From the NCBI GenBank assembly GCA_026398535.1, contig JAPLSQ010000066.1:1-64000 (forward strand): DNA of 64,000 bases, read 5' to 3'. Below are positions 40,767 to 54,216 of this stretch, one piece after another (the first letter of the stretch is position 1; each line of letters starts with the position of its first letter). The stretch is from Candidatus Sumerlaeota bacterium (GTDB taxonomy: Bacteria > Sumerlaeota > Sumerlaeia > Sumerlaeales > Sumerlaeaceae). The position numbers and the translations under genes are program-made. The notes beneath the pieces are model-generated. The model saw only the letters and a program-made list of their open reading frames with translations, made no database searches and was not told where the DNA came from.

Positions 40767-40791
40767 TTCATTCATGTAATTCGTGAATGAA
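40767..40791. promoter_or_regulatory. 8-bp inverted repeat between uvrB and FtsX-like gene
   Basis: TTCATTCA and TGAATGAA, separated by nine bases, form a perfect inverted repeat over the possible GTG start of the FtsX-like gene. If translation starts instead at ATG 40828, the repeat lies in the leader and could be an operator. No regulator is known. Confidence 0.35.
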
Positions 40792-41655
40792 AAAGAACAC
40801 GAACACCGCAACCAATCCGCAATCCCGATGCCCGCACCTGTCCACCCGCCGGAAAAAATAAAACGAGTCGGCGTGGGCGCTTATATCGCGCTCAACGGTT
40901 TTTTCGCCGGTTTGGCGTTATTTGTGGCATTGCTCATTTTCTGGGCGCGCGGCGGAATCGAGGCGGTGATACGCGACCGTCTGTCGGACATTGTCACCCT
41001 CGCGGTGTTGCGCCCCGAAGTGGATGATGTCCGGGCACGGTCGCTTGCCGCGCGGGTCGAAAAGGAAACGCCCGGCGTCAAGGCCTCGGCCATGGGCTCC
41101 GCGGAGGCGCGCGAGCTCATGGCCATCCAGGAGCCGTGGATGAAAAATCTTCCTGACATCGAAATCCCAGTCCTGCCTGCCATCATTGAAATGCGCCACC
41201 CGGATCTCATCATGTTGCCATCGGGCCTTGAAAAGTTCCATGATGAATTGTCGCGCATGCCAGAGACGGATTACCTTATTTTCAACGAGCAGGGGCATGA
41301 GGTCTTCAGGGCGTTTGTGTTCAGCGCGCGCGCCTATGCGTCGCTCATTGGAGTCGCCCTGCTTGCCGCCATTTCAGCGGGTCTGGTGATGTTCCACTCT
41401 GTCTGGGCCCGCGGCAAGCCGGGCCACGGCGCGTTCATGGCTGTTTTCCTTGCCATTGCCGAAACCGTCATCGCGGCCGCCGCCGGATGGGTGATTTTTC
41501 AGTGCGTGCGGTTCATTGCCCGCCCGTTCCCTATCCCAGTTGATCCACCGCGTCCCGCCGTTGTCGGGGCCATGATCGCGGTCCTGTTCGTTGTCATCTT
41601 CGCGCTCGAGATTCTCACGGGCTTTAAGCGCCGGGCATGTGTGGCGCCAAAATGA
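40783..41655 (+). CDS. FtsX-like membrane protein
   Basis: Up to 290 residues (GTG 40783; ATG 40828 would give 275 and looks equally good). One helix (about 37-58), an extracytoplasmic domain (about 65-180), then three helices (about 185-205, 220-245, 258-280) give the four-helix FtsX topology. The outer domain has the FtsX pattern of LAVLRPEVDD, then EKETPGVKASAMGSAEARELM and LPDIEIPVLPAIIEM. FtsX with the ATPase FtsE controls cell-wall hydrolases at division. No ftsE is adjacent. The stop overlaps the next gene's ATG (ATGA), and that gene is EnvC-like, which supports the call. Confidence 0.7.
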   Translation: MNEKEHEHRNQSAIPMPAPVHPPEKIKRVGVGAYIALNGFFAGLALFVALLIFWARGGIEAVIRDRLSDIVTLAVLRPEVDDVRARSLAARVEKETPGVKASAMGSAEARELMAIQEPWMKNLPDIEIPVLPAIIEMRHPDLIMLPSGLEKFHDELSRMPETDYLIFNEQGHEVFRAFVFSARAYASLIGVALLAAISAGLVMFHSVWARGKPGHGAFMAVFLAIAETVIAAAAGWVIFQCVRFIARPFPIPVDPPRPAVVGAMIAVLFVVIFALEILTGFKRRACVAPK

Positions 41656-43130
41656 GCCCTCGGCCGCGCAAAGATTATGGCGCAGGCTTCCAGCCTGTCA
41701 AAAGCCGCCCTGGCGCTCCCGGCGTGCTTAACCTGCTTGCCATAATCTGCCTGTCCGCAATGCTGCTTGGAGCGGTTTCATCGGAGCGCAAGTCCAGTGG
41801 CTCGCAGACATCAAGGACCGGCTCACAAGCCGCGAAAACAGCCGCGACCCCGAAACAAGCGCCCGCAAAGAAACAATCCATGAACGCGAAACAGGCATCG
41901 CGGGAAACCGTAGCGGACACAACACTCACGGCGACATATCTTTCCGTTCCGCGCAAACCCAAACTGTCCGCGAAACAGGCCGAAGCGGTAAAAATTGTCT
42001 GGTCTCGGCCAGTCATCACCATCACATCCCCGCGAATGAGCGGTTTCCCCTATGATCCCTACGAACTGGGATCGCATTTCCTGAAACGCTGGGACCTCCT
42101 GCATTTCGTCATGACCCCGTCAGAGCTTGCCGTTTACAGGCGCGATTCAGCCATGGAAGGGGTGAGGCGCATCGCGCGAATCTTCACCCGCCTCTCCGAG
42201 GCCGGCACGCAACGGCGCGCCAATATGTCGCGCGCGGCGGCGGCGCTCCATCTTATGCGGCGGGCAAATAACACCCCTCTTTACTGGCATCCGTCCCCTT
42301 CGTTGCTCCACATCGCCGGATTCAGGGCCGCCATTGAATCCGATGCGGCTGATGCGCGCGTGGCGCGGGACAGCTATGAACCGCTGCGCGATGCGCTCAA
42401 CGCCGCCGTGGAAAAAGCGCGTCTTTCTGAAAGCGCGGCGGCGGCAGAACAAAAATATCAGACCGCTGTGTTCAGCCCGACCAGCCGGTATGCCATCACG
42501 GAGTCCGTGATGGACGCCGTTGTTCGCGCGCAGGAACAGGCGCTGGCCGAGTGTTCGCTATCGCCTGCCGCGGCCGCGGCATTGGACGATGCGAGCCGCT
42601 ATCTCCGACGTTCAAGCGCGCGCGTCCTGCTGGCGTCGCTGGGGCCGCCCTCGCCTTCGCCCATGCCCGCATATCATCCGCTGGTGCCCGACGACACCCC
42701 CCTGCCCGATGGTTTGCTCGATCCGTCCGGAGTTTCCGCGCGCGCAATTCCCCGGCGGCCCCTGCCCGCTCTGCGTTCGCACCTCATCCCGGCGCCGGCA
42801 GGCGCAACCGTGCTGGCCGCGGCGGACGGTAAAGTGCTTTTCGCGGGGGAACTGCGCGGTTACGAGCGCCTTGTCATCATGGAACATTCCGGCGACACGA
42901 TCACTCTCTATGGCATGTTGAGCGATTGTCTGGTCTCGGCAGGGCAAACGGTTGACAAAGGCCAGCCCATTGGGCGCGCTGGCAAAGCGTCCTGGAGCGG
43001 CGCGGCAGCAGCCAGCGGCGTTGTGTTTGAGGTTCGGCGAAAAGGAGCGCTCATCAGCCCTGCCTCGCTTACCGGCGGCGCCCCGCCTGAAAAGATCATT
43101 CTTCAATCACGCCGCGAGCAGTCACAATAA
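41652..43130 (+). CDS. EnvC-like murein hydrolase activator (degenerate LytM domain)
   Basis: 492 residues from ATG 41652, fused to the FtsX-like stop codon as ATGA. A basic start and hydrophobic segment (about 27-43) suggest export. A long mostly helical middle leads to a C-terminal LytM/M23 domain (about 375-492) whose order GATVLAAADGKVLFAG, GYERLVIMEHSGD, TLYGMLSDCLVSAGQTV, KGQPIG, FEVRRKGALISP closely follows E. coli EnvC. The first zinc-ligand motif of active LytM enzymes (H-x3-D) is absent, as in EnvC, which activates amidases rather than cutting peptidoglycan. The first 20 or so residues contain a hairpin repeat read as protein. Confidence 0.8.
   Translation: MSPRPRKDYGAGFQPVKSRPGAPGVLNLLAIICLSAMLLGAVSSERKSSGSQTSRTGSQAAKTAATPKQAPAKKQSMNAKQASRETVADTTLTATYLSVPRKPKLSAKQAEAVKIVWSRPVITITSPRMSGFPYDPYELGSHFLKRWDLLHFVMTPSELAVYRRDSAMEGVRRIARIFTRLSEAGTQRRANMSRAAAALHLMRRANNTPLYWHPSPSLLHIAGFRAAIESDAADARVARDSYEPLRDALNAAVEKARLSESAAAAEQKYQTAVFSPTSRYAITESVMDAVVRAQEQALAECSLSPAAAAALDDASRYLRRSSARVLLASLGPPSPSPMPAYHPLVPDDTPLPDGLLDPSGVSARAIPRRPLPALRSHLIPAPAGATVLAAADGKVLFAGELRGYERLVIMEHSGDTITLYGMLSDCLVSAGQTVDKGQPIGRAGKASWSGAAAASGVVFEVRRKGALISPASLTGGAPPEKIILQSRREQSQ
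41683..41697. repeat. Hairpin repeat inside the EnvC-like gene start
   Basis: CAGGCT-TCC-AGCCTG, six paired bases with a three-base loop, falling in codons 11-16 of the EnvC-like gene. It is of the same kind as 43157-43171 and 4806-4819. Confidence 0.5.
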
Positions 43131-43156
43131 CCGCTCCAAGTCATCAGCCCCGAAGC

Positions 43157-43171
43157 GGAGGCGGGGCCTCC
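43157..43171. repeat. GC-rich hairpin between convergent EnvC-like and amidase genes
   Basis: GGAGGC-GGG-GCCTCC, a perfect six-base stem with three-base loop, within a GC-rich stretch followed by GGGGCGAGACGTCCCC-like sequence (about 43204-43219). Possible shared terminator and member of the dispersed hairpin family. Confidence 0.5.
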
Positions 43172-43231
43172 CGCCCCACACTCTTATGAGCGGCATTTAT
43201 TTGGGGGCGAGACGTCCCCTCCGTCCATTGA

Positions 43232-46200
43232 TCAGTAAAGGTTCCACTCGCCCACGGTGGTCACACTAAAATAATTCAAGATTTTACCCATGACGGTGTT
43301 GCGGACGGATTCGCTGCGGATGGTCTCGAAACCAAAACCGAGATACACGAGACGCCCATAGATGGAGGAACCGCCGAAGATGCCCGTGTATTGAATGCCC
43401 GCCGTGCCGCCTGAGCCGCCTGCGTAAGTCATGCAGACAGTCGAGCCGCCGTATGCGGTGATGGTGTCGGGCGCGCTGACGTCGTATGTGTCACCCGTGC
43501 CGTCGTCGAAGCTGAATGTCGTGATGCCCGCGAAGATTCCACCCGAGGCTCCCAGCGCCTGGTAGGTGTTTGCGTCGTCGTTGACGTAAGAGGCTTTCAT
43601 GTAGTTGTTGAGGAACGCTTTTTTTGTGGTGTCGCGATTGAAATCGAAAGCCAGCTGGCTGTTGCTCATGAAGACCTTTCCGCCGGCCTGCAGATAGTTT
43701 TGCAACTTAGCGCGCGAGTTGGGCTTGATGGCCGTGTCATCGGTGTTGATCGGTTCAGTGTCGACCTCAGCCTCCTGGGCGCCGATCCAGTCAATCATGC
43801 CGTAAGGCGTCAGTGAGGCCTGTCCTGCTTCGACGCATTCAGCGGAACAGGAATCGAAGCTGATCGCGAAGTTCGACAGCGCTTTGCCGTGCTGGATGAT
43901 GTAATTGAAGCTCTGGAAATTGCGCCAGTCGATCTTTCGCACGAGGTTGTTCGCGCATCCCATGACGGCGGCCACGAGACGTGGCAGATAGCGGTCGAAG
44001 CGGTGCGAGCCGTTGACGACGAGCGCCTGCGCCTGGCTGCCCGCGGTCACGCGCGCCGCAAGGGTTTCTGTGGGGATGGACACGCCCGCGCTGTTGTAAG
44101 CCGACACCCGGAAAAACATGAGCTGGCCGGGCGTCAGCGTGAAAGTGTAATTGGCCGGGGCTGTGATTGTTCCGGAATCGAACCCGTAACCGTTCGTGCT
44201 GGTGTGGACCCTGTAGCCGGTGGCGGCGCTTCCGCAGGGATGGGAGGCGTCGCGCACGGGGCCAGCCGCCCAATCGAGGCGCACCTGACCGTTGCCGATG
44301 TTCTTCACGCGGAAATTCGTGGGCGCCTCGGGCGGGAAGGTTGTGCCGCCGTAATAGCTGATGATGCCCTGCGTGATCCCCCGCGCGAAGGCGAAGCGGA
44401 ACTTCGGATCCTTCCATGCGGCCACGTCCGACGTGTTGTCGGCGAAAAGCGCCTCGAGGAAGAATCCCGACACAGTTCCGAGATTGCTCTGGCTGCACTC
44501 GCCATAACTGTTGCTTCCCGTGATGCCGCGGTCGCTCCAACTTGAATCGTAGAAGGCCTTGAGGTTGCTGATCACGGCATTGTGGACGGCCGTGGTCAGG
44601 TTCTTTGTGCCGGCGGTGGCATCGGCGTCAACGTCCCTGAAGGAATCGGTTCCGCGCGCGGCGCCTGATTGCTCTGTCCCGCCCGAGCATCCGCCGTTGT
44701 AAGCGTTGGTGTGGAAGCCGATATAAATGGTGTCATTGCCCTCGTTGTCGCGGCTCTGCTCCCATGAGGCGTAAGCGGGGCGGTCGCTCCAGCCGAGTTC
44801 TTCGTCATCGTAGTTCGTGGTGTTGTCGTAATAAAGCGGCCCACCGTTTGCCGCTCCGCCGAGATAATTCAGGTAGTTGACGCACTCTTCCTGCCATCGC
44901 GCCTTGCCGCTGACACCGTGGGTTCGCCGCGCCACATCGCCCATTCCGCCGCCGAATCGAACGGCGTCGCAGGAAACGATAGAGCCGTTGGGCGCGTCGT
45001 TCAAAACGGCGACTTTGCCGGTCGCGGGATTGGCGCCAGCCGCGAAGTAAAAGTTGCCTATAAGCACCCACGTGGCGCCGTCGCGCTGTTCGTTGATGCG
45101 GAAGTCAGCCAAGCCGCCCGTGTGATAAACCTGCCAGTGGGCTTGAGTTGTGCGGTTGCTGCCGGATGAATAACTGATATAAACATTATAGTATCCCGCC
45201 GCCGGAATGGTGGGCGTGTATGTAGCGGTCGCCGTGGCGGCGCCGGAGACAACAGTAGCATATCGTGTGGCGCTTGTGTTGCCAAAGGGATTGACAAGCA
45301 CGCCGTTCCATGATGCGGTTGTTTTATTGATAAAGCCGTTGGCTGTGGAGTTGTTCCATGTGCCGGTTTCCGCGTAGGCGGGCGCCCCCTGCGCGTTATC
45401 AACGATGGCCATGTTGGTCTGCATGTCGCACTCGCGCCCGGGTTGGACACGCGCGCCGCAATTGAGCAGTTGCGGCACGAGAAACATGGAAAGAAATTCG
45501 TTGGAGCTGTAATCCTCGAGTTGCTCATAGAGTTTGGAGCGTTGCACACGCCAGCCATTGGTGTCGTCCAGCCAGCCGTGCGCCTGGTTTAGAACGACGG
45601 CCTTGCCCGAAAGCGCGCCGGTGATCTGACCCGACGGCGGCGCGGGCGGGGCAACCAACAGGCTTGGCGCAGCCGCCGGGGCCGGCGGTGTTCCATCTGT
45701 CATGGCGTTGTCAGGCTCGGGGACAAACGCCTTCGGTTTGGGCAGGTATGAGCGGATGGGCATATAACTGCCCGACCCTGAATCTTTCACATAGAAGTAA
45801 TAATTGCGCAATCCTTCCTCGCGCAATGTTCCATGGAACTGGTGGGCGATGCCCTCGACCAGCCCAGGCGAGTACTTCGGGGTTCCCAGCCAGCCGGGCG
45901 GCAGATCTAAGTGGATGCGTATGGTTTTATCGGGCGTCACATCGATCTTCCCGAGGGTCGTGCCGTCGGGCAGGGCGCTGGAGAATCCCCGGGCGCGTTC
46001 ATCGGCCGTGGGGCCGTTGACCACAGCCTGCGCCAGCGCACTAACACGGTCGGCCTGGGCGACGGTCATTCTGACAGGCACGGTACCGGCTGGCCGTACC
46101 GCGACTGCGGGCATGCCATCGCGGAGAAACACCAGTTGAAGCGTTGCCGGCTCAGTCGCTTGGGTGAGCGGAGCATATGCCATAATCGTTGCGCAGACAA

Positions 46201-46243
46201 AAAAAACAGCGGCACATCCCGCCAGCCTTGAATGCAGTGTCAT
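43232..46243 (-). CDS. Large secreted N-acetylmuramoyl-L-alanine amidase with GerMN, golvesin-like and FnIII domains
   Basis: About 1003 residues from ATG 46243; a signal peptide ends near residue 30. Residues about 40-150 resemble a GerMN domain (NGPTADERARGFSSALPDGT). An amidase_3 domain is split: zinc histidine in LNQAHGW (about 219) and glutamate in SSNEF, then a golvesin/xanthan-lyase-type beta domain (about 310-430, with YTPTIPAAGYYNVYISY and CDAVRFGGG). The remainder of the amidase carries the second histidine in YIGFHTNA (about 509) and the catalytic glutamate in GFFLEALFADN (about 594). A fibronectin III domain (about 640-735) and an unassigned C-terminal domain follow. Zinc ligands are complete, so it probably cuts peptide from peptidoglycan. 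It converges on the EnvC-like gene. Confidence 0.82.
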   Translation of the reverse strand: MTLHSRLAGCAAVFFVCATIMAYAPLTQATEPATLQLVFLRDGMPAVAVRPAGTVPVRMTVAQADRVSALAQAVVNGPTADERARGFSSALPDGTTLGKIDVTPDKTIRIHLDLPPGWLGTPKYSPGLVEGIAHQFHGTLREEGLRNYYFYVKDSGSGSYMPIRSYLPKPKAFVPEPDNAMTDGTPPAPAAAPSLLVAPPAPPSGQITGALSGKAVVLNQAHGWLDDTNGWRVQRSKLYEQLEDYSSNEFLSMFLVPQLLNCGARVQPGRECDMQTNMAIVDNAQGAPAYAETGTWNNSTANGFINKTTASWNGVLVNPFGNTSATRYATVVSGAATATATYTPTIPAAGYYNVYISYSSGSNRTTQAHWQVYHTGGLADFRINEQRDGATWVLIGNFYFAAGANPATGKVAVLNDAPNGSIVSCDAVRFGGGMGDVARRTHGVSGKARWQEECVNYLNYLGGAANGGPLYYDNTTNYDDEELGWSDRPAYASWEQSRDNEGNDTIYIGFHTNAYNGGCSGGTEQSGAARGTDSFRDVDADATAGTKNLTTAVHNAVISNLKAFYDSSWSDRGITGSNSYGECSQSNLGTVSGFFLEALFADNTSDVAAWKDPKFRFAFARGITQGIISYYGGTTFPPEAPTNFRVKNIGNGQVRLDWAAGPVRDASHPCGSAATGYRVHTSTNGYGFDSGTITAPANYTFTLTPGQLMFFRVSAYNSAGVSIPTETLAARVTAGSQAQALVVNGSHRFDRYLPRLVAAVMGCANNLVRKIDWRNFQSFNYIIQHGKALSNFAISFDSCSAECVEAGQASLTPYGMIDWIGAQEAEVDTEPINTDDTAIKPNSRAKLQNYLQAGGKVFMSNSQLAFDFNRDTTKKAFLNNYMKASYVNDDANTYQALGASGGIFAGITTFSFDDGTGDTYDVSAPDTITAYGGSTVCMTYAGGSGGTAGIQYTGIFGGSSIYGRLVYLGFGFETIRSESVRNTVMGKILNYFSVTTVGEWNLY

Positions 46244-46344
46244 ATCAAAGTATCCGTCCTGGGGTCTCAAAATGAAAAAGCAGGTGATTGTATTGACGTG
46301 TTATCAAATCGGTGGCGACACAATTCACAAGGTCATAGACATAT

Positions 46345-50622: not shown

Positions 50623-53600
50623 ATGTCTGACAACTTGTTTTCTCCAGGAATGGAACGGCTTCTCCGTTCGTTGCCGCTGGCGCTTTGCGCGGCGGCGTTT
50701 CTTCAAGTGAATTGTGCGGCTGCGCCGGTTTCAGCGGCAACGATGACCCTGCCATTGAGTTTTGAGCCGAACCGCGGCCAGGCTCCGGCGGGCGTTGACT
50801 ATGTGGCGCGCAGCCGCGGCGGTTGCGCCGCGATGCTTTCCGCCAATGCCCTGACGCTGGCGGTTTTGCCGCGCCGCGTCGAAGGGCCGCTGGAAAGATT
50901 CACGCCGGCTGGCGGCGGCGGACAAAGCCAGGAAACATCCGCCACGGGCGCCGTTTTCCGTGTTGAGCTGATAGGCGCGTCCGCGGACGCCCGCATGGAG
51001 GCGTTTGATCCCCTGCCCGGACGAATCAATTATCTGATCGGTGACGACTGCGGCGCATGGCGCACGGATATCCCGACCTATGGCCGCGTGGAATGCGGCG
51101 AAGTCTGGCCTGGAATCGGCGCCGTCTATTATGGCAATGAACGCCAGCTTGAATACGATTTCAACCTTGCGCCCGGCACGCGCCCCGAAGCCGTGCGCAT
51201 GCGGATTCTTGGGGCGGACTCGCTCGAACCGGACGCCGAGGGGAATCTCCTTGTCCGGTGCGGCCTCGTCAGCCTTGTCATGCGCAAACCCGCCGCCTAT
51301 CAGCCTTTGCCCGGCGCGCCTATCAGCACACAGGATGCCGGATTTTACCAATCCCCAGCCCGCCGCGAGGTGGAGGTCTGTTACTCGCTTTCTGCCGATT
51401 ATGAGGTGTCGTTTTGTGTTGGCGCGTATGATTCAACCAAACCGCTGGTAATTGATCCCGTGTTCACCTATTCGTCCTATCTTGGCGGATCGGGCGATGA
51501 CGAGGCGCACGCGGTGGCGGTGGATGCGTCTGGCAATATTTATATTGCGGGCCGCACAACCGGCGATTTCCCCGTCACGGCAGGCGCGTATCAGCGCACA
51601 TATAAGGACAACACCGACGCGTTCGTCTCAAAGATCAATCCCGGCAAGAGCGCCGCCGCCAGCCTTGTCTATTCCACTTATCTCGGCGGCAGCGGATTCG
51701 ACGAAGCCAACGGCATTGCCGTGGACATAAACGGCGCCGCTTATGTGGCCGGCAAGACGGGCTCGTCCAACTTCCCTATGTCAAAAATGTTTGGGGCAGG
51801 CGGCGGATACGACATCTTCATCACCAAACTCAACAGCAGCGGCTCGAATCTTGTGTACTCGGTGCGCATGGGCGGATCGATGGACGATTCGGCGGCGGCG
51901 CTGGCGCTGGATGCCTCGCTGAACGCGTATATCGCGGGTTCGACGCTCTCCCCGGATTTTCCCACTCAAAGCGCCGCGCGCGGCTACTACTCCGGCAACA
52001 GCGACGCCATTGTGGCGAAAATCAACGGCTCAGGCTCCACGCTCCGATATTCGACTTACCTTGGAGGCTCGTTTATCGACTATGGATACGGAATCGCCGT
52101 GGATGGCGACGGCTCGGCTATCGTGACAGGCTCGACAAGCTCCTCGGATTTCCCCACGAAAAGCGCCTTCCAGTCAATTTATGCCGGCGGCAGCAGCGAT
52201 GCCTTCGTGACCAAGCTCAAGAGCGACGGCACGAACTGGGTCTTCTCGACTTTCATGGGAGGAAGCACGGCCTCAACAGGCGGCGCCGCCGCCGACATAG
52301 GCGTGGGTGTGGCCGCCGACAGCCAGAAGAACATCTTCGTCACCGGTTACACCTCCTCGCTTAATTTCCCCATGGAAAAAGCCATCCAGCCATACTTCGG
52401 CGGAGGCGTTTTCGATGCCTTCATGCTCAAATTCAACTCCAGCGGCTCAACACTGTTCTGGTCGTCCTACCTCGGCGGGAAAGGCGACGACGTCGCCTTG
52501 GGCGCGGCCGTCGACAAGCTGTCGAATTATTATGTGACCGGCGAGACCTACTCGCCCGATTTCCCTGTCATCAATGCCCTGCAGGACACTTATGACTGTT
52601 GCGGGGACGGTTTTGCCGCGAAGATCAATCCCGGCGGCACATTGCTCATGTACTCGACTTATTTCGGCGGCGGCGGGCAGGATATTTCCTATGGCATCGC
52701 GACGGACAGCTCGGGCAACGCCGCCGTTGCGGGAGTCACAACTTCGCCGGATTTCCCCGTCACGGATAATGCTTACTCCCAGGTTTTCGGCGGCGGCCTG
52801 ACCGACGCTTTCGCGGCGCGCATCAGCCCCGCTGTCAGGGTGGCACAGGATGACATCTTCACATCGGGCAACATCCAGCCGCCCGGCTCGCTCACCGGTT
52901 GGAGCGTCTTAGGCTTCAACGTCCCGGGCTTTGCCGCCGCCGACTACAACAGCACGGCCAAGGCGTTTCGCGGGTGGGTGGCTTACGATCCCTCGCTCTA
53001 CCGCATCACCGGCTGGATGTGCAACATGAGCGATTGGCTGAAATACGTCTATATCGGCCCGGAAAAGTATGTGCGCGTCAAATACTACATCTATACGAGC
53101 GGCACGACGGCGCCGACCGGCGCGAATGCCATACCCAACATGCGCATGAGGGCTTCCACGCGTTTCGCCGTCAACTCGATGCTCGAGGTGTTCAATCATC
53201 TGAATGTCGATTTGACCAGCCAGATTTACTACCAGGAGCTCAAACCGTCCTCTGACTCAACGAAGCCGTCGCTCTACCGCGTGGATTTTGACCCCGTCGA
53301 CGTGCCTTTCCTTATGAACAATGCAGGCACTGAGGGTGTGCTCCGCGCGTTTGAAACGTATGCCATTGATCCGCAGGACAACGGCTACATCGGCATGACG
53401 GAGAGTTCGATCGGCGTCTACCCCTCTTGGATGATTGACGACACAGGGACGCCGGCCAAGGTGTTTGCGCCCACGGCCAGCGACGCGGGCAATCTCAAGG
53501 TTTACACTCCGACGGAACTGGACTGCTACGACCTGATCCTCTCAAGCACAATGGGCGTGTTCGCCGTGCGCGACATGAGCACGACAACGCCGCTGCCCGC

Positions 53601-54216
53601 TTACTCCGAGGGGCCATGGGGCATCACGATGGATTCGGCGCTCGTGCCGGCGAACCGCGTGGGCGTGGTCTCGCGCGAGTTCAATCCGGGCGCCAGCGAG
53701 ACGGCCCCGGGATGGCTTCGCGTGGAGGAGGGGCGGCAATACAAGATACGCTGGCATATTACGAGCACGCAAATGTCGAACCAGAACAGCGGCCTGACAC
53801 TTCGCGGGCGCTCGATCAAGTTCGGCTGGTCGCAAAAATATGAGTTGAGCGGCGCGTGGTCCACCGGCGGCTCTGTGCCGGGCGCCAACGCAACAATCTG
53901 CCAGCAGGCGCTGCCGGGCATCGGGTGCCAGAATCCGGACAAGGAGGGCGCCGAGAACGGCGGCTGGTACACGATGCTCATGCATACGCCCATGAGCATT
54001 GACATCCGTCCAGAGTATGCGGGGCCTCTGGTCAACCGCATGCCCAACATTTGCGCCCAGCCCGGGCCGATGCAACCCGGCTATTCGCGCCGCGACATTC
54101 GCTTCGGCTGTGACCTGATCGACACGCTCAGCGTGGGCGTCAACAAGGATCTTGAGCGCGGCAACTTCACCATCGATCGCATCATCGTGCGTATCTATAA
54201 TCTCGTCGATGATTGA
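50623..54216 (+). CDS. Secreted protein with seven SBBP repeats (predicted beta-propeller)
   Basis: 1197 residues. A signal peptide (about 1-38) precedes a conserved N-terminal module beginning FEPNRGQAPAGVDYVARS, as in DUF7948-type SBBP proteins. From nucleotide about 51460 to 52833 there are seven successive repeats of about 60-70 residues, each built like YSTYLGGSGxDEAxGIAVD-xxGNxYVAGxTxSxDFPV followed by DAFVxKIN. Seven copies suit a seven-bladed propeller. The last 450 residues have no recognised motif but are rich in aromatic and cysteine residues, looking like a beta-rich surface or binding domain. Likely exported to the surface; ligand unknown. ATG 50650 is an alternative start. Confidence 0.85.
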   Translation: MSDNLFSPGMERLLRSLPLALCAAAFLQVNCAAAPVSAATMTLPLSFEPNRGQAPAGVDYVARSRGGCAAMLSANALTLAVLPRRVEGPLERFTPAGGGGQSQETSATGAVFRVELIGASADARMEAFDPLPGRINYLIGDDCGAWRTDIPTYGRVECGEVWPGIGAVYYGNERQLEYDFNLAPGTRPEAVRMRILGADSLEPDAEGNLLVRCGLVSLVMRKPAAYQPLPGAPISTQDAGFYQSPARREVEVCYSLSADYEVSFCVGAYDSTKPLVIDPVFTYSSYLGGSGDDEAHAVAVDASGNIYIAGRTTGDFPVTAGAYQRTYKDNTDAFVSKINPGKSAAASLVYSTYLGGSGFDEANGIAVDINGAAYVAGKTGSSNFPMSKMFGAGGGYDIFITKLNSSGSNLVYSVRMGGSMDDSAAALALDASLNAYIAGSTLSPDFPTQSAARGYYSGNSDAIVAKINGSGSTLRYSTYLGGSFIDYGYGIAVDGDGSAIVTGSTSSSDFPTKSAFQSIYAGGSSDAFVTKLKSDGTNWVFSTFMGGSTASTGGAAADIGVGVAADSQKNIFVTGYTSSLNFPMEKAIQPYFGGGVFDAFMLKFNSSGSTLFWSSYLGGKGDDVALGAAVDKLSNYYVTGETYSPDFPVINALQDTYDCCGDGFAAKINPGGTLLMYSTYFGGGGQDISYGIATDSSGNAAVAGVTTSPDFPVTDNAYSQVFGGGLTDAFAARISPAVRVAQDDIFTSGNIQPPGSLTGWSVLGFNVPGFAAADYNSTAKAFRGWVAYDPSLYRITGWMCNMSDWLKYVYIGPEKYVRVKYYIYTSGTTAPTGANAIPNMRMRASTRFAVNSMLEVFNHLNVDLTSQIYYQELKPSSDSTKPSLYRVDFDPVDVPFLMNNAGTEGVLRAFETYAIDPQDNGYIGMTESSIGVYPSWMIDDTGTPAKVFAPTASDAGNLKVYTPTELDCYDLILSSTMGVFAVRDMSTTTPLPAYSEGPWGITMDSALVPANRVGVVSREFNPGASETAPGWLRVEEGRQYKIRWHITSTQMSNQNSGLTLRGRSIKFGWSQKYELSGAWSTGGSVPGANATICQQALPGIGCQNPDKEGAENGGWYTMLMHTPMSIDIRPEYAGPLVNRMPNICAQPGPMQPGYSRRDIRFGCDLIDTLSVGVNKDLERGNFTIDRIIVRIYNLVDD
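51460..52833 (+). repeat. Seven tandem SBBP protein repeats (coding)
   Basis: Degenerate coding repeats of roughly 180-215 bases inside the SBBP gene; each copy contains LGGS/MGGS, a VD or AD motif, and a DFP or NFP motif. Confidence 0.8.

What the first reader, a model, noticed from the sequence alone, without database searches (positions are those of the whole stretch)
40783..46243. FtsX-like/EnvC-like pair without FtsE, facing a secreted amidase
The FtsX-like gene overlaps the EnvC-like gene by ATGA, and the EnvC-like LytM domain lacks an active-site motif, as in real EnvC. In E. coli FtsEX drives EnvC to activate amidases. Here a large amidase_3 protein lies 101 bases away in convergent orientation, and no ftsE is adjacent. 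This looks like a local wall-hydrolysis module, either using a distant FtsE or working without ATPase.
Basis: partly seen in the sequence, partly recalled or inferred. Interest (0 to 1): 0.5.

Follow-up and report, generated by a model that had tools for sequence, protein, structure and literature searches.

The report
FtsX–EnvC pair without its ATPase
In Sumerlaeota-group bacteria a cell-division membrane protein, FtsX, and its wall-cutting activator partner, EnvC, have been kept (once even fused into one protein) while the ATP-burning motor FtsE that normally drives them, and the part of FtsX that grips that motor, seem to be gone.

Summary
The FtsX-like/EnvC-like pair is real. Of 39 class genomes searched, 15 have the FtsX-like protein, and in 12 of those the EnvC-like protein is encoded next to it or fused to it. 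The FtsX-like protein is a true but very divergent FtsX: Foldseek ranks 1–18 in the PDB are all FtsX/FtsEX entries, and its periplasmic domain superposes on E. coli FtsX (rmsd 2.7 Å over 99 residues).

I found no FtsE. No class genome passes the FtsE cut-off. In four genomes the best FtsE-like ATPases fall outside a strongly supported FtsE clade; eight of eight checked look more like LolD or MacB. The coupling helix that FtsE grips is missing or unrecognisable in 14 of 14 class sequences tested. The EnvC-binding X-lobe is kept in the window's family.

The amidase next door is not part of the module: in nine other pair-bearing genomes none lies within about 25 kb on the same contig (two contigs are short).

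Best reading: an ATPase-free FtsX that anchors EnvC at the membrane; amidase activation without ATP is inferred. Fusobacterium nucleatum is a precedent for a locus without adjacent ftsE. New variant of a known kind; function untested.

The parts
40783..41655 (+). FtsX homologue (P0001, 290 aa; GTG start, possible later ATG): 4 TM helices, periplasmic Porter + X-lobe domain about residues 70–170, TM2–TM3 turn of about 5 residues in the model (no coupling helix)
41652..43130 (+). EnvC-like secreted protein (P0002): N-terminal hydrophobic segment, low-complexity stretch, helical region, degenerate LytM/M23 domain (residues 384–475 counted from the ATG at 41637)
41652..41655 (+). ATGA overlap of the ftsX-like stop and the envC-like start
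43232..46270 (-). large secreted Amidase_3 protein with a Golvesin_C domain (P0003; probable start ATG at 46243); neighbour, not a conserved part of the pair

Best explanation
The gene at 40783–41655 encodes a real but highly diverged FtsX, and the overlapping gene encodes its EnvC-type partner. In this bacterial class (Sumerlaeota/BRC1 lineage) the FtsE ATPase has been lost and FtsX has lost the cytoplasmic coupling helix that FtsE grips, while the periplasmic X-lobe that holds EnvC is kept (clearly so in the window's family). FtsX then acts as a passive, ATP-independent membrane anchor that positions EnvC (probably at the division site, where FtsA is still present), and EnvC's catalytically dead LytM domain recruits or activates an amidase encoded elsewhere. 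Shown here: FtsX fold, pair conservation, degenerate LytM, no detectable FtsE, coupling helix missing, fusion in one genome. Inferred: EnvC binding, septal location, amidase activation without ATP.
For: FtsX identity: 7 of 7 family members match TIGR00439, best E 2.2e-8; the other three families listed match one member each, one of them FtsX_Gpos. The 12-sequence class profile has FtsX as its top four PDB matches, E 1.2e-8, 0.0016, 0.031, 0.21. Foldseek ranks 1–18 are all FtsX/FtsEX entries; 6tpi_B Z 11.2, rmsd 2.7 over 99 residues. Pair: FtsX-like in 15 of 39 class genomes, EnvC-like directly downstream or fused in 12 of 15. Fusion: G012, one 671-aa ORF matching both profiles. FtsE: 0 of 39 class genomes pass the TIGR02673 cut-off, best 228.1 bits; 23 class ATPases from 4 genomes all lie outside a 35-row FtsE clade, support 100/99; 8 of 8 class ATPases scanned have LolD or MacB, not FtsE, as best NCBIfam model, whereas two low-scoring outgroup FtsE beside FtsX have FtsE best by over 55 bits. 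Coupling helix: 23–51 bits in 24 FtsX from genomes with FtsE, 0 or negative in 14 of 14 class sequences, while all 14 keep positive periplasmic-domain scores. X-lobe: E. coli Phe152/Phe158/Leu162/Leu165 (passage) correspond to Met113/Trp119/Leu123/Ile126 by the profile alignment and by the VIA ranges; Trp119 is W in 9 of 12 class sequences. Class genomes keep FtsA: 36 of 39. Literature: FtsE–FtsX contact is mainly through the coupling helix, and FtsX is reported to localise without FtsE (PMC11139282 section 10); AmiB activation in Vibrio cholerae is described as nucleotide-independent (PMC11139282 section 8).
Against: Nothing functional was tested. FtsE score alone cannot decide: outgroup FtsE beside FtsX scored as low as 213–219 bits (G077, G105, G051), inside the class range. 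The full candidate set was scored and treed only for G000, G004, G010 and G012; for the other class genomes one search scored 19 candidates each. Most genomes are incomplete MAGs (own 92.7%); G004 is one contig, listed as 96% complete. A small LolD-like ATPase without a permease next door (by eye) occurs in G000 (L005), G004 (L200) and G010 (L198), which group together (97/93); it could serve FtsX in trans. Families f4, f6, f9 and f10 have TM2–TM3 gaps of 23–43 residues by hydropathy, so another ATPase contact there is not excluded. The X-lobe Trp is lost in f9 and f10, and the f6 fusion keeps it but not the other hydrophobic positions fully. The seven-sequence profile found only 2 of the 64 PF18075 outgroup genomes and no significant PDB match. 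EnvC structure prediction failed (pLDDT 36). In E. coli, FtsX–EnvC without ATP-bound FtsE only moderately activates AmiB, like EnvC alone (PMC11139282 section 8). G015 and G017 have no EnvC neighbour, and 24 of 39 class genomes show no FtsX-like match, including G005 of the window's own family.
Confidence: 0.62

Rival explanations
1. FtsX still works as an ABC-type mechanotransmitter, but with a non-FtsE ATPase supplied in trans, as suspected in Fusobacterium nucleatum.
For: F. nucleatum ftsX-envC lacks an adjacent ftsE and an FtsX pull-down found another ABC ATPase (PMC5915739, passages). The own genome has 67 matches to the FtsE model at E<=0.001, some of them fragments. A LolD-like ATPase with no permease beside it (by eye) occurs in G000, G004 and G010 (L005, L200, L198). 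Some class members have a 23–43-residue TM2–TM3 gap.
Against: In the window's family the gap is 6–19 residues by hydropathy and 5 in the AlphaFold model, short for a coupling helix, and no coupling-helix sequence is recognisable in 14 of 14 class sequences. Several other ATPases inspected sit next to permeases or adaptors of their own (by eye).
Confidence: 0.17
2. The FtsX remnant is only a vestigial membrane anchor and EnvC has been repurposed (e.g. an elongation or outer-wall role, not division).
For: Strong divergence (21–30% identity to P0001 within one family); no FtsX-like match in 24 of 39 class genomes; in three genomes the pair precedes uppS–cdsA (wall/lipid precursor genes; products named by eye).
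Against: Ten columns, all in the periplasmic domain, are invariant in 7 of 7 family members, as expected of a selected surface. FtsA is present in 36 of 39 class genomes.
Confidence: 0.12
3. A local trio: FtsX, EnvC and the facing amidase form one wall-hydrolysis module.
For: The genes are 101 bases apart in this genome, and P0003 has a weak Amidase_3 match.
Against: No Amidase_3 gene within about 25 kb on the same contig in the nine other pair-bearing genomes searched (two contigs short); convergent orientation; P0003 is the weakest of six Amidase_3 matches in its own genome.
Confidence: 0.05
4. FtsE exists but is missing from the assemblies or too diverged to recognise.
For: MAG incompleteness; outgroup FtsE beside FtsX can score 213–219 bits.
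Against: 0 of 39 class genomes over cut-off; none over cut-off in the single-contig genome G004; the tree; best-model test, 0 of 8 class ATPases with FtsE best; loss of the FtsE-binding helix itself.
Confidence: 0.1

Closest known systems
FtsEX–EnvC (type VII ABC system; E. coli, P. aeruginosa, V. cholerae)
   Same: FtsX topology and periplasmic fold, X-lobe hydrophobic positions in the window's family, EnvC-type degenerate LytM partner encoded next door.
   Different: No FtsE found, coupling helix missing or unrecognisable, TM2–TM4 region hardly conserved, TIGR00439 and PF18075 cut-offs not reached.
Fusobacterium nucleatum ftsX–envC locus (PMC5915739; passages read)
   Same: ftsX-envC locus without an adjacent ftsE; deletion of either gene gives long filaments there.
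   Different: The authors suspect another ATPase in trans; the passages I saw say nothing of a lost coupling helix; unrelated phylum (recalled). I did not have its FtsX sequence.
FtsX–EnvC fusion in an unnamed outgroup genome (G062, L224)
   Same: One polypeptide with FtsX and LytM domains and no ABC gene found within the 8 kb fetched.
   Different: Keeps PF18075 and PF02687 matches over cut-off and a coupling-helix score of 23 bits; its genome was not shown to lack FtsE.

Membership tests
FtsX | 4 TM helices with a large periplasmic domain between TM1 and TM2 | tested here: met
FtsX | Porter fold plus FtsX-specific X-lobe | tested here: met
   (6tpi_B Z 11.2, rmsd 2.7 over 99 residues; Foldseek ranks 1–18 all FtsX/FtsEX entries)
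FtsX | Sequence profile FtsX_Gneg TIGR00439 at curated cut-off | tested here: not met
   14.7 of 255 bits; 0 of 39 class genomes over cut-off; weak match in 7 of 7 members, best E 2.2e-8
FtsX | Coupling helix between TM2 and TM3 | tested here: not met
FtsEX ABC transporter | FtsE ATPase, normally adjacent | tested here: not met
   absence is a strong inference, not proof
EnvC | LytM/M23 domain with lost zinc ligands | tested here: met
EnvC | Encoded adjacent to FtsX | tested here: met
   adjacency or fusion in 12 of 15 genomes; binding itself not testable
EnvC | Equivalog NF008644 at cut-off | tested here: not met
   59 of 270 bits for P0002, LytM region only; best PDB match of the family profile is E. 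coli EnvC 4bh5, E 4.5e-22
EnvC | FtsX-binding coiled coil and restraining arm | tested here: inconclusive
   AlphaFold model pLDDT 36, helices only
EnvC | Activates an amidase | not testable with these tools
   needs biochemistry

The most novel reading that the evidence does not exclude
FtsX can be uncoupled from its ATPase in evolution: whole lineages keep an FtsX–EnvC amidase activator as an ATP-independent membrane tether (sometimes as one fused protein), and the coupling helix decays once FtsE is lost. Weak or absent coupling-helix scores in ten outgroup genomes without a clear FtsE (0–23 bits, three of them zero; FtsE absence there provisional) suggest this happened more than once.
Probability: 0.45. 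Interest if true: 0.78.

Novelty: new variant of a known kind. Interest (0 to 1): 0.6.

Why it matters
FtsEX is the textbook example of an ABC transporter that sends force, not cargo, across the membrane, and ATP binding by FtsE is thought to release EnvC's self-inhibition. A lineage that kept FtsX and EnvC but lost FtsE and its docking helix is a natural test of what the ATP cycle is for. Either EnvC can be controlled without ATP (tethering, membrane or divisome signals), or another energy source has replaced FtsE. The natural FtsX–EnvC fusion is a ready construct for that test.

Tried and rejected
Single-sequence profile searches for FtsX were nearly negative, and the seven-sequence profile had no significant PDB match (best E 1.3; FtsX 8i6o at E 2.9); the 12-sequence class profile was needed. 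The AlphaFold model of EnvC was useless (pLDDT 36) and was not searched. A strict coupling-helix regular expression (18 of 20 canonical, 0 of 14 class) was dropped as main evidence because it also misses FtsX of genomes with FtsE (G128, G127, G057); the profile score with leave-one-out replaced it. FtsE bit score as sole criterion was rejected because outgroup FtsE beside FtsX reached down to 213 bits. The trio idea was rejected. The fold comparison also lists non-FtsX rows (e.g. Mesd/Boca at Z 9.4, Lrp/AsnC-type), below the best FtsX rows but above some weaker ones. After a check of the draft I scanned eight class ATPases and two outgroup FtsE for their best family model and recomputed the X-lobe correspondence; both agreed with the draft, and the permease-less LolD-like ATPase was added as evidence against.

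Selections to know: one search's 19 training FtsX come from the 20 best-scoring of 64 PF18075 genomes (one, G093, set aside as ambiguous). I picked the further outgroup loci mostly for lacking an adjacent FtsE in the lists; four of those fetched repeat genomes already in the set and were not counted again. Of the 24 'with FtsE', 23 have an FtsE-model match of 248 bits or more and one (G074, the lowest at 23.2 bits) only an ABC gene overlapping FtsX; the best of the ten 'without' is 23.1, so the two groups touch. FtsE absence in those ten is provisional (no tree; G060 has a 230-bit and G116 a 224-bit match). The class set of 14 has two close relatives (G016, G022) and one sequence cut by a contig end (G014); G025 is not in it. 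One search dropped 8 rows of 300 aa or more (7 class, 1 FtsE), and two of its 35 FtsE rows are the same gene. The G012 fusion ends 90 bases from a contig end. Literature novelty rests in an open-access library only.
Full report
WHAT IS THERE. The window (G000 contig C8) holds an FtsX-like gene at 40783–41655 and an EnvC-like gene ending at 43130, overlapping by ATGA at 41652–41655. A large minus-strand amidase gene (43232–46270, probable ATG at 46243) faces them across 101 bases. The neighbours are uvrB on one side and surE and a GH20-type enzyme on the other. Homologues lie on contigs titled 'candidate division BRC1 bacterium HGW-BRC1-1' and 'Candidatus Sumerlaeaceae bacterium isolate SKW162'. 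Their lengths (110,505 and 7,462) equal those of the contigs in G002 and G003, which are of the window's family. So the window comes from the Sumerlaeota/BRC1 lineage.

THE FtsX-LIKE PROTEIN IS FtsX. Alone it nearly fails: Pfam gives nothing credible and TIGR00439 gives E=0.013, 14.7 of 255 bits. But 7 of 7 family members match TIGR00439, best 2.2e-8. A profile of these seven finds the PF18075-bearing FtsX genes of outgroup genomes G066 and G123 at the same places, though only these 2 of the 64, and has no significant PDB match. A 12-sequence class profile has FtsX as its top four PDB matches: 8i6o 1.2e-8, 8tzj 0.0016, 8hd0 0.031, 8ymc 0.21. The AlphaFold model (pLDDT 68.7; periplasmic domain mostly 65–92 by blocks of ten) shows TM1, a beta-alpha-beta/X-lobe/beta-alpha-beta domain, then TM2, TM3 and TM4. 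Foldseek ranks 1–18 are all FtsX/FtsEX entries. VIA-align gives 8ymc_C Z 12.4 and 6tpi_B (E. coli FtsX domain bound to EnvC) Z 11.2, rmsd 2.7 over 99 residues. LolC and MacB rows come far lower in Foldseek (E 0.68 and above).

THE PAIR IS CONSERVED. The FtsX-like protein occurs in 15 of 39 class genomes. In the window's family it is in 7 of 8 genomes, each time directly followed by the EnvC-like gene. Outside the family the pair is in G010, G016, G022 and G025. In G012 both are one 671-aa ORF matching the FtsX profile at residues 25–207 and the LytM part of the EnvC profile at 558–648; it ends 90 bases from a contig end. That is 12 of 15 adjacent or fused. In G014 the two genes lie at contig ends, unresolved. 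G015 and G017 have FtsX-like genes without an EnvC neighbour. In G010 the order is thioesterase–FtsX–EnvC–CtpA-type S41 peptidase. In G001, G004 and G007 uppS and cdsA follow (gene names read by eye from the sequences).

EnvC-LIKE PROTEIN. P0002's M23 domain scores 74.8 bits in Pfam; the family profile's best PDB match is E. coli EnvC, E 4.5e-22. Aligned with two intact M23 proteins of the class, 13 of 13 class EnvC-like proteins lack the complete zinc-ligand set, and none keeps the full HxH. The coiled coil could not be verified for the window's family.

NO FtsE. In the own genome PF18075 has no match and the best TIGR02673 score is 208.7 against cut-off 264.85. Over 147 genomes, 40 pass the FtsE cut-off, none of them in the class; the class best is 228.1 bits (which scored 19 candidates in most genomes). 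PF18075 matched 64 of 147 genomes, none of them G000–G041. In the class, TIGR00439 passes cut-off in 0 of 39; the matches listed (a capped list) cover either the N-terminal half (the FtsX-like genes) or a C-terminal part (other permeases), none the whole model. Score alone is not decisive, since three outgroup FtsE genes lying next to FtsX score 213–219. So I built a tree: 35 FtsE rows (over cut-off or beside FtsX) are one side of a branch with support 100/99, and 23 class ATPases under 300 aa from G000, G004, G010 and G012 lie on the other. In a best-model test, 8 of 8 class ATPases (six from G000, one each from G004 and G010) score highest with LolD (7) or MacB (1), whereas the low-scoring outgroup FtsE of G105 and G077 score highest with FtsE by more than 55 bits. 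G004 is a single 3.29-Mb contig. One result cuts the other way: a LolD-like ATPase with no permease beside it, by eye, is shared by G000, G004 and G010 and could act in trans.

THE FtsE-DOCKING HELIX IS GONE. In known FtsEX, FtsE binds FtsX through a conserved coupling helix between TM2 and TM3 (PMC11627006 section 7; PMC11139282 section 10). I scored that 23-column segment against an FtsX profile (leave-one-out for its own members). It gives 23–51 bits in 24 FtsX from genomes with FtsE, 0–23 bits in 10 outgroup FtsX without a clear FtsE, and 0 or below in 14 of 14 class sequences (13 with no residues aligned, one at −15.8). The periplasmic-domain scores stay positive in all 14, 4–37 bits. The hydropathy gap TM2–TM3 is 6–19 residues in the window's family against 26–41 in the 20 canonical FtsX, and 5 in the model. 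Families f4, f6, f9 and f10 keep 23–43-residue gaps without a recognisable helix.

THE EnvC-BINDING SURFACE IS KEPT in the window's family. E. coli X-lobe contacts Phe152, Phe158, Leu162 and Leu165 (PMC7668044 section 9, passage) correspond to Met113, Trp119, Leu123 and Ile126. Two alignments agree: the profile alignment to 8hd0 and the VIA range 70–170 to 109–209 with 99 residues aligned. The Trp is present in 9 of 12 class sequences, not in f9 or f10.

THE AMIDASE. P0003 is an Amidase_3 protein with a Golvesin_C domain that appears inserted in the amidase fold. Its genome has six Amidase_3 matches and P0003 is the weakest. In the nine other pair-bearing genomes searched, the nearest Amidase_3 on the same contig is about 25 kb away (G001); two contigs are short, G003 7.5 kb and G007 4.9 kb.

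MECHANISM. Shown: fold, pairing, lost docking helix, no FtsE found, FtsA present in 36 of 39 class genomes. Inferred: FtsX tethers EnvC, and EnvC's LytM domain activates an amidase elsewhere in the genome without an ATP cycle. In E. coli, FtsX–EnvC, like EnvC alone, only moderately activates AmiB, while V. cholerae activation is described as nucleotide-independent (PMC11139282 section 8). So ATP-free activation is plausible but unproven.

NOVELTY. F. nucleatum is a published ftsX–envC locus without adjacent ftsE, where deleting either gene gives filaments (PMC5915739, passages read); its authors suspect a trans-acting ATPase. The Sumerlaeota genome paper does not mention FtsX or FtsZ in its main text (PMC8092238, term search). 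The listings of my searches (open-access library only; titles and abstract starts seen) showed no report of an FtsX without a coupling helix or of a natural FtsX–EnvC fusion.

Noticed in passing
L224:3688-5694 (+), genome G062: A second natural FtsX–EnvC fusion (668 aa) outside the class, with Pfam FtsX domains over cut-off and coupling helix kept; no ABC gene found in the 8 kb fetched.
   Followed up: partly
L225, L232, L235 (genomes G067, G116, G060): FtsX proteins outside the class in which no coupling helix aligns, in genomes without a clear FtsE; possible independent losses.
   Followed up: partly
L005:1501-2181 (G000:C34), L200 (G004), L198 (G010): A small LolD-like ATPase shared by these genomes with no permease gene beside it (by eye); candidate trans partner of FtsX or of another permease.
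   Followed up: partly
window 43232-46270 (-): Amidase_3 domain apparently split by an inserted Golvesin_C domain; proteins of about 1000 aa with weak Amidase_3 matches recur in the relatives, away from the pair.
   Followed up: partly
L016:4469-6733 (+): A secreted protein similar to the Golvesin region of the window amidase about 2.5 kb upstream of the pair in G002.
   Followed up: no
L062:3731-8396; L095 and L097: In families f9 and f10 the FtsX-like gene lies beside a gene that looks like smc (by eye).
   Followed up: no
L061:6784-7254 and L105:2574-3149: A 4HBT-type thioesterase gene sits upstream of the FtsX–EnvC unit in two families (f4, f6), a shared synteny.
   Followed up: partly
window 50623-54216 (+): 1197-aa protein with DUF7948 and SBBP beta-propeller repeats.
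   Followed up: no
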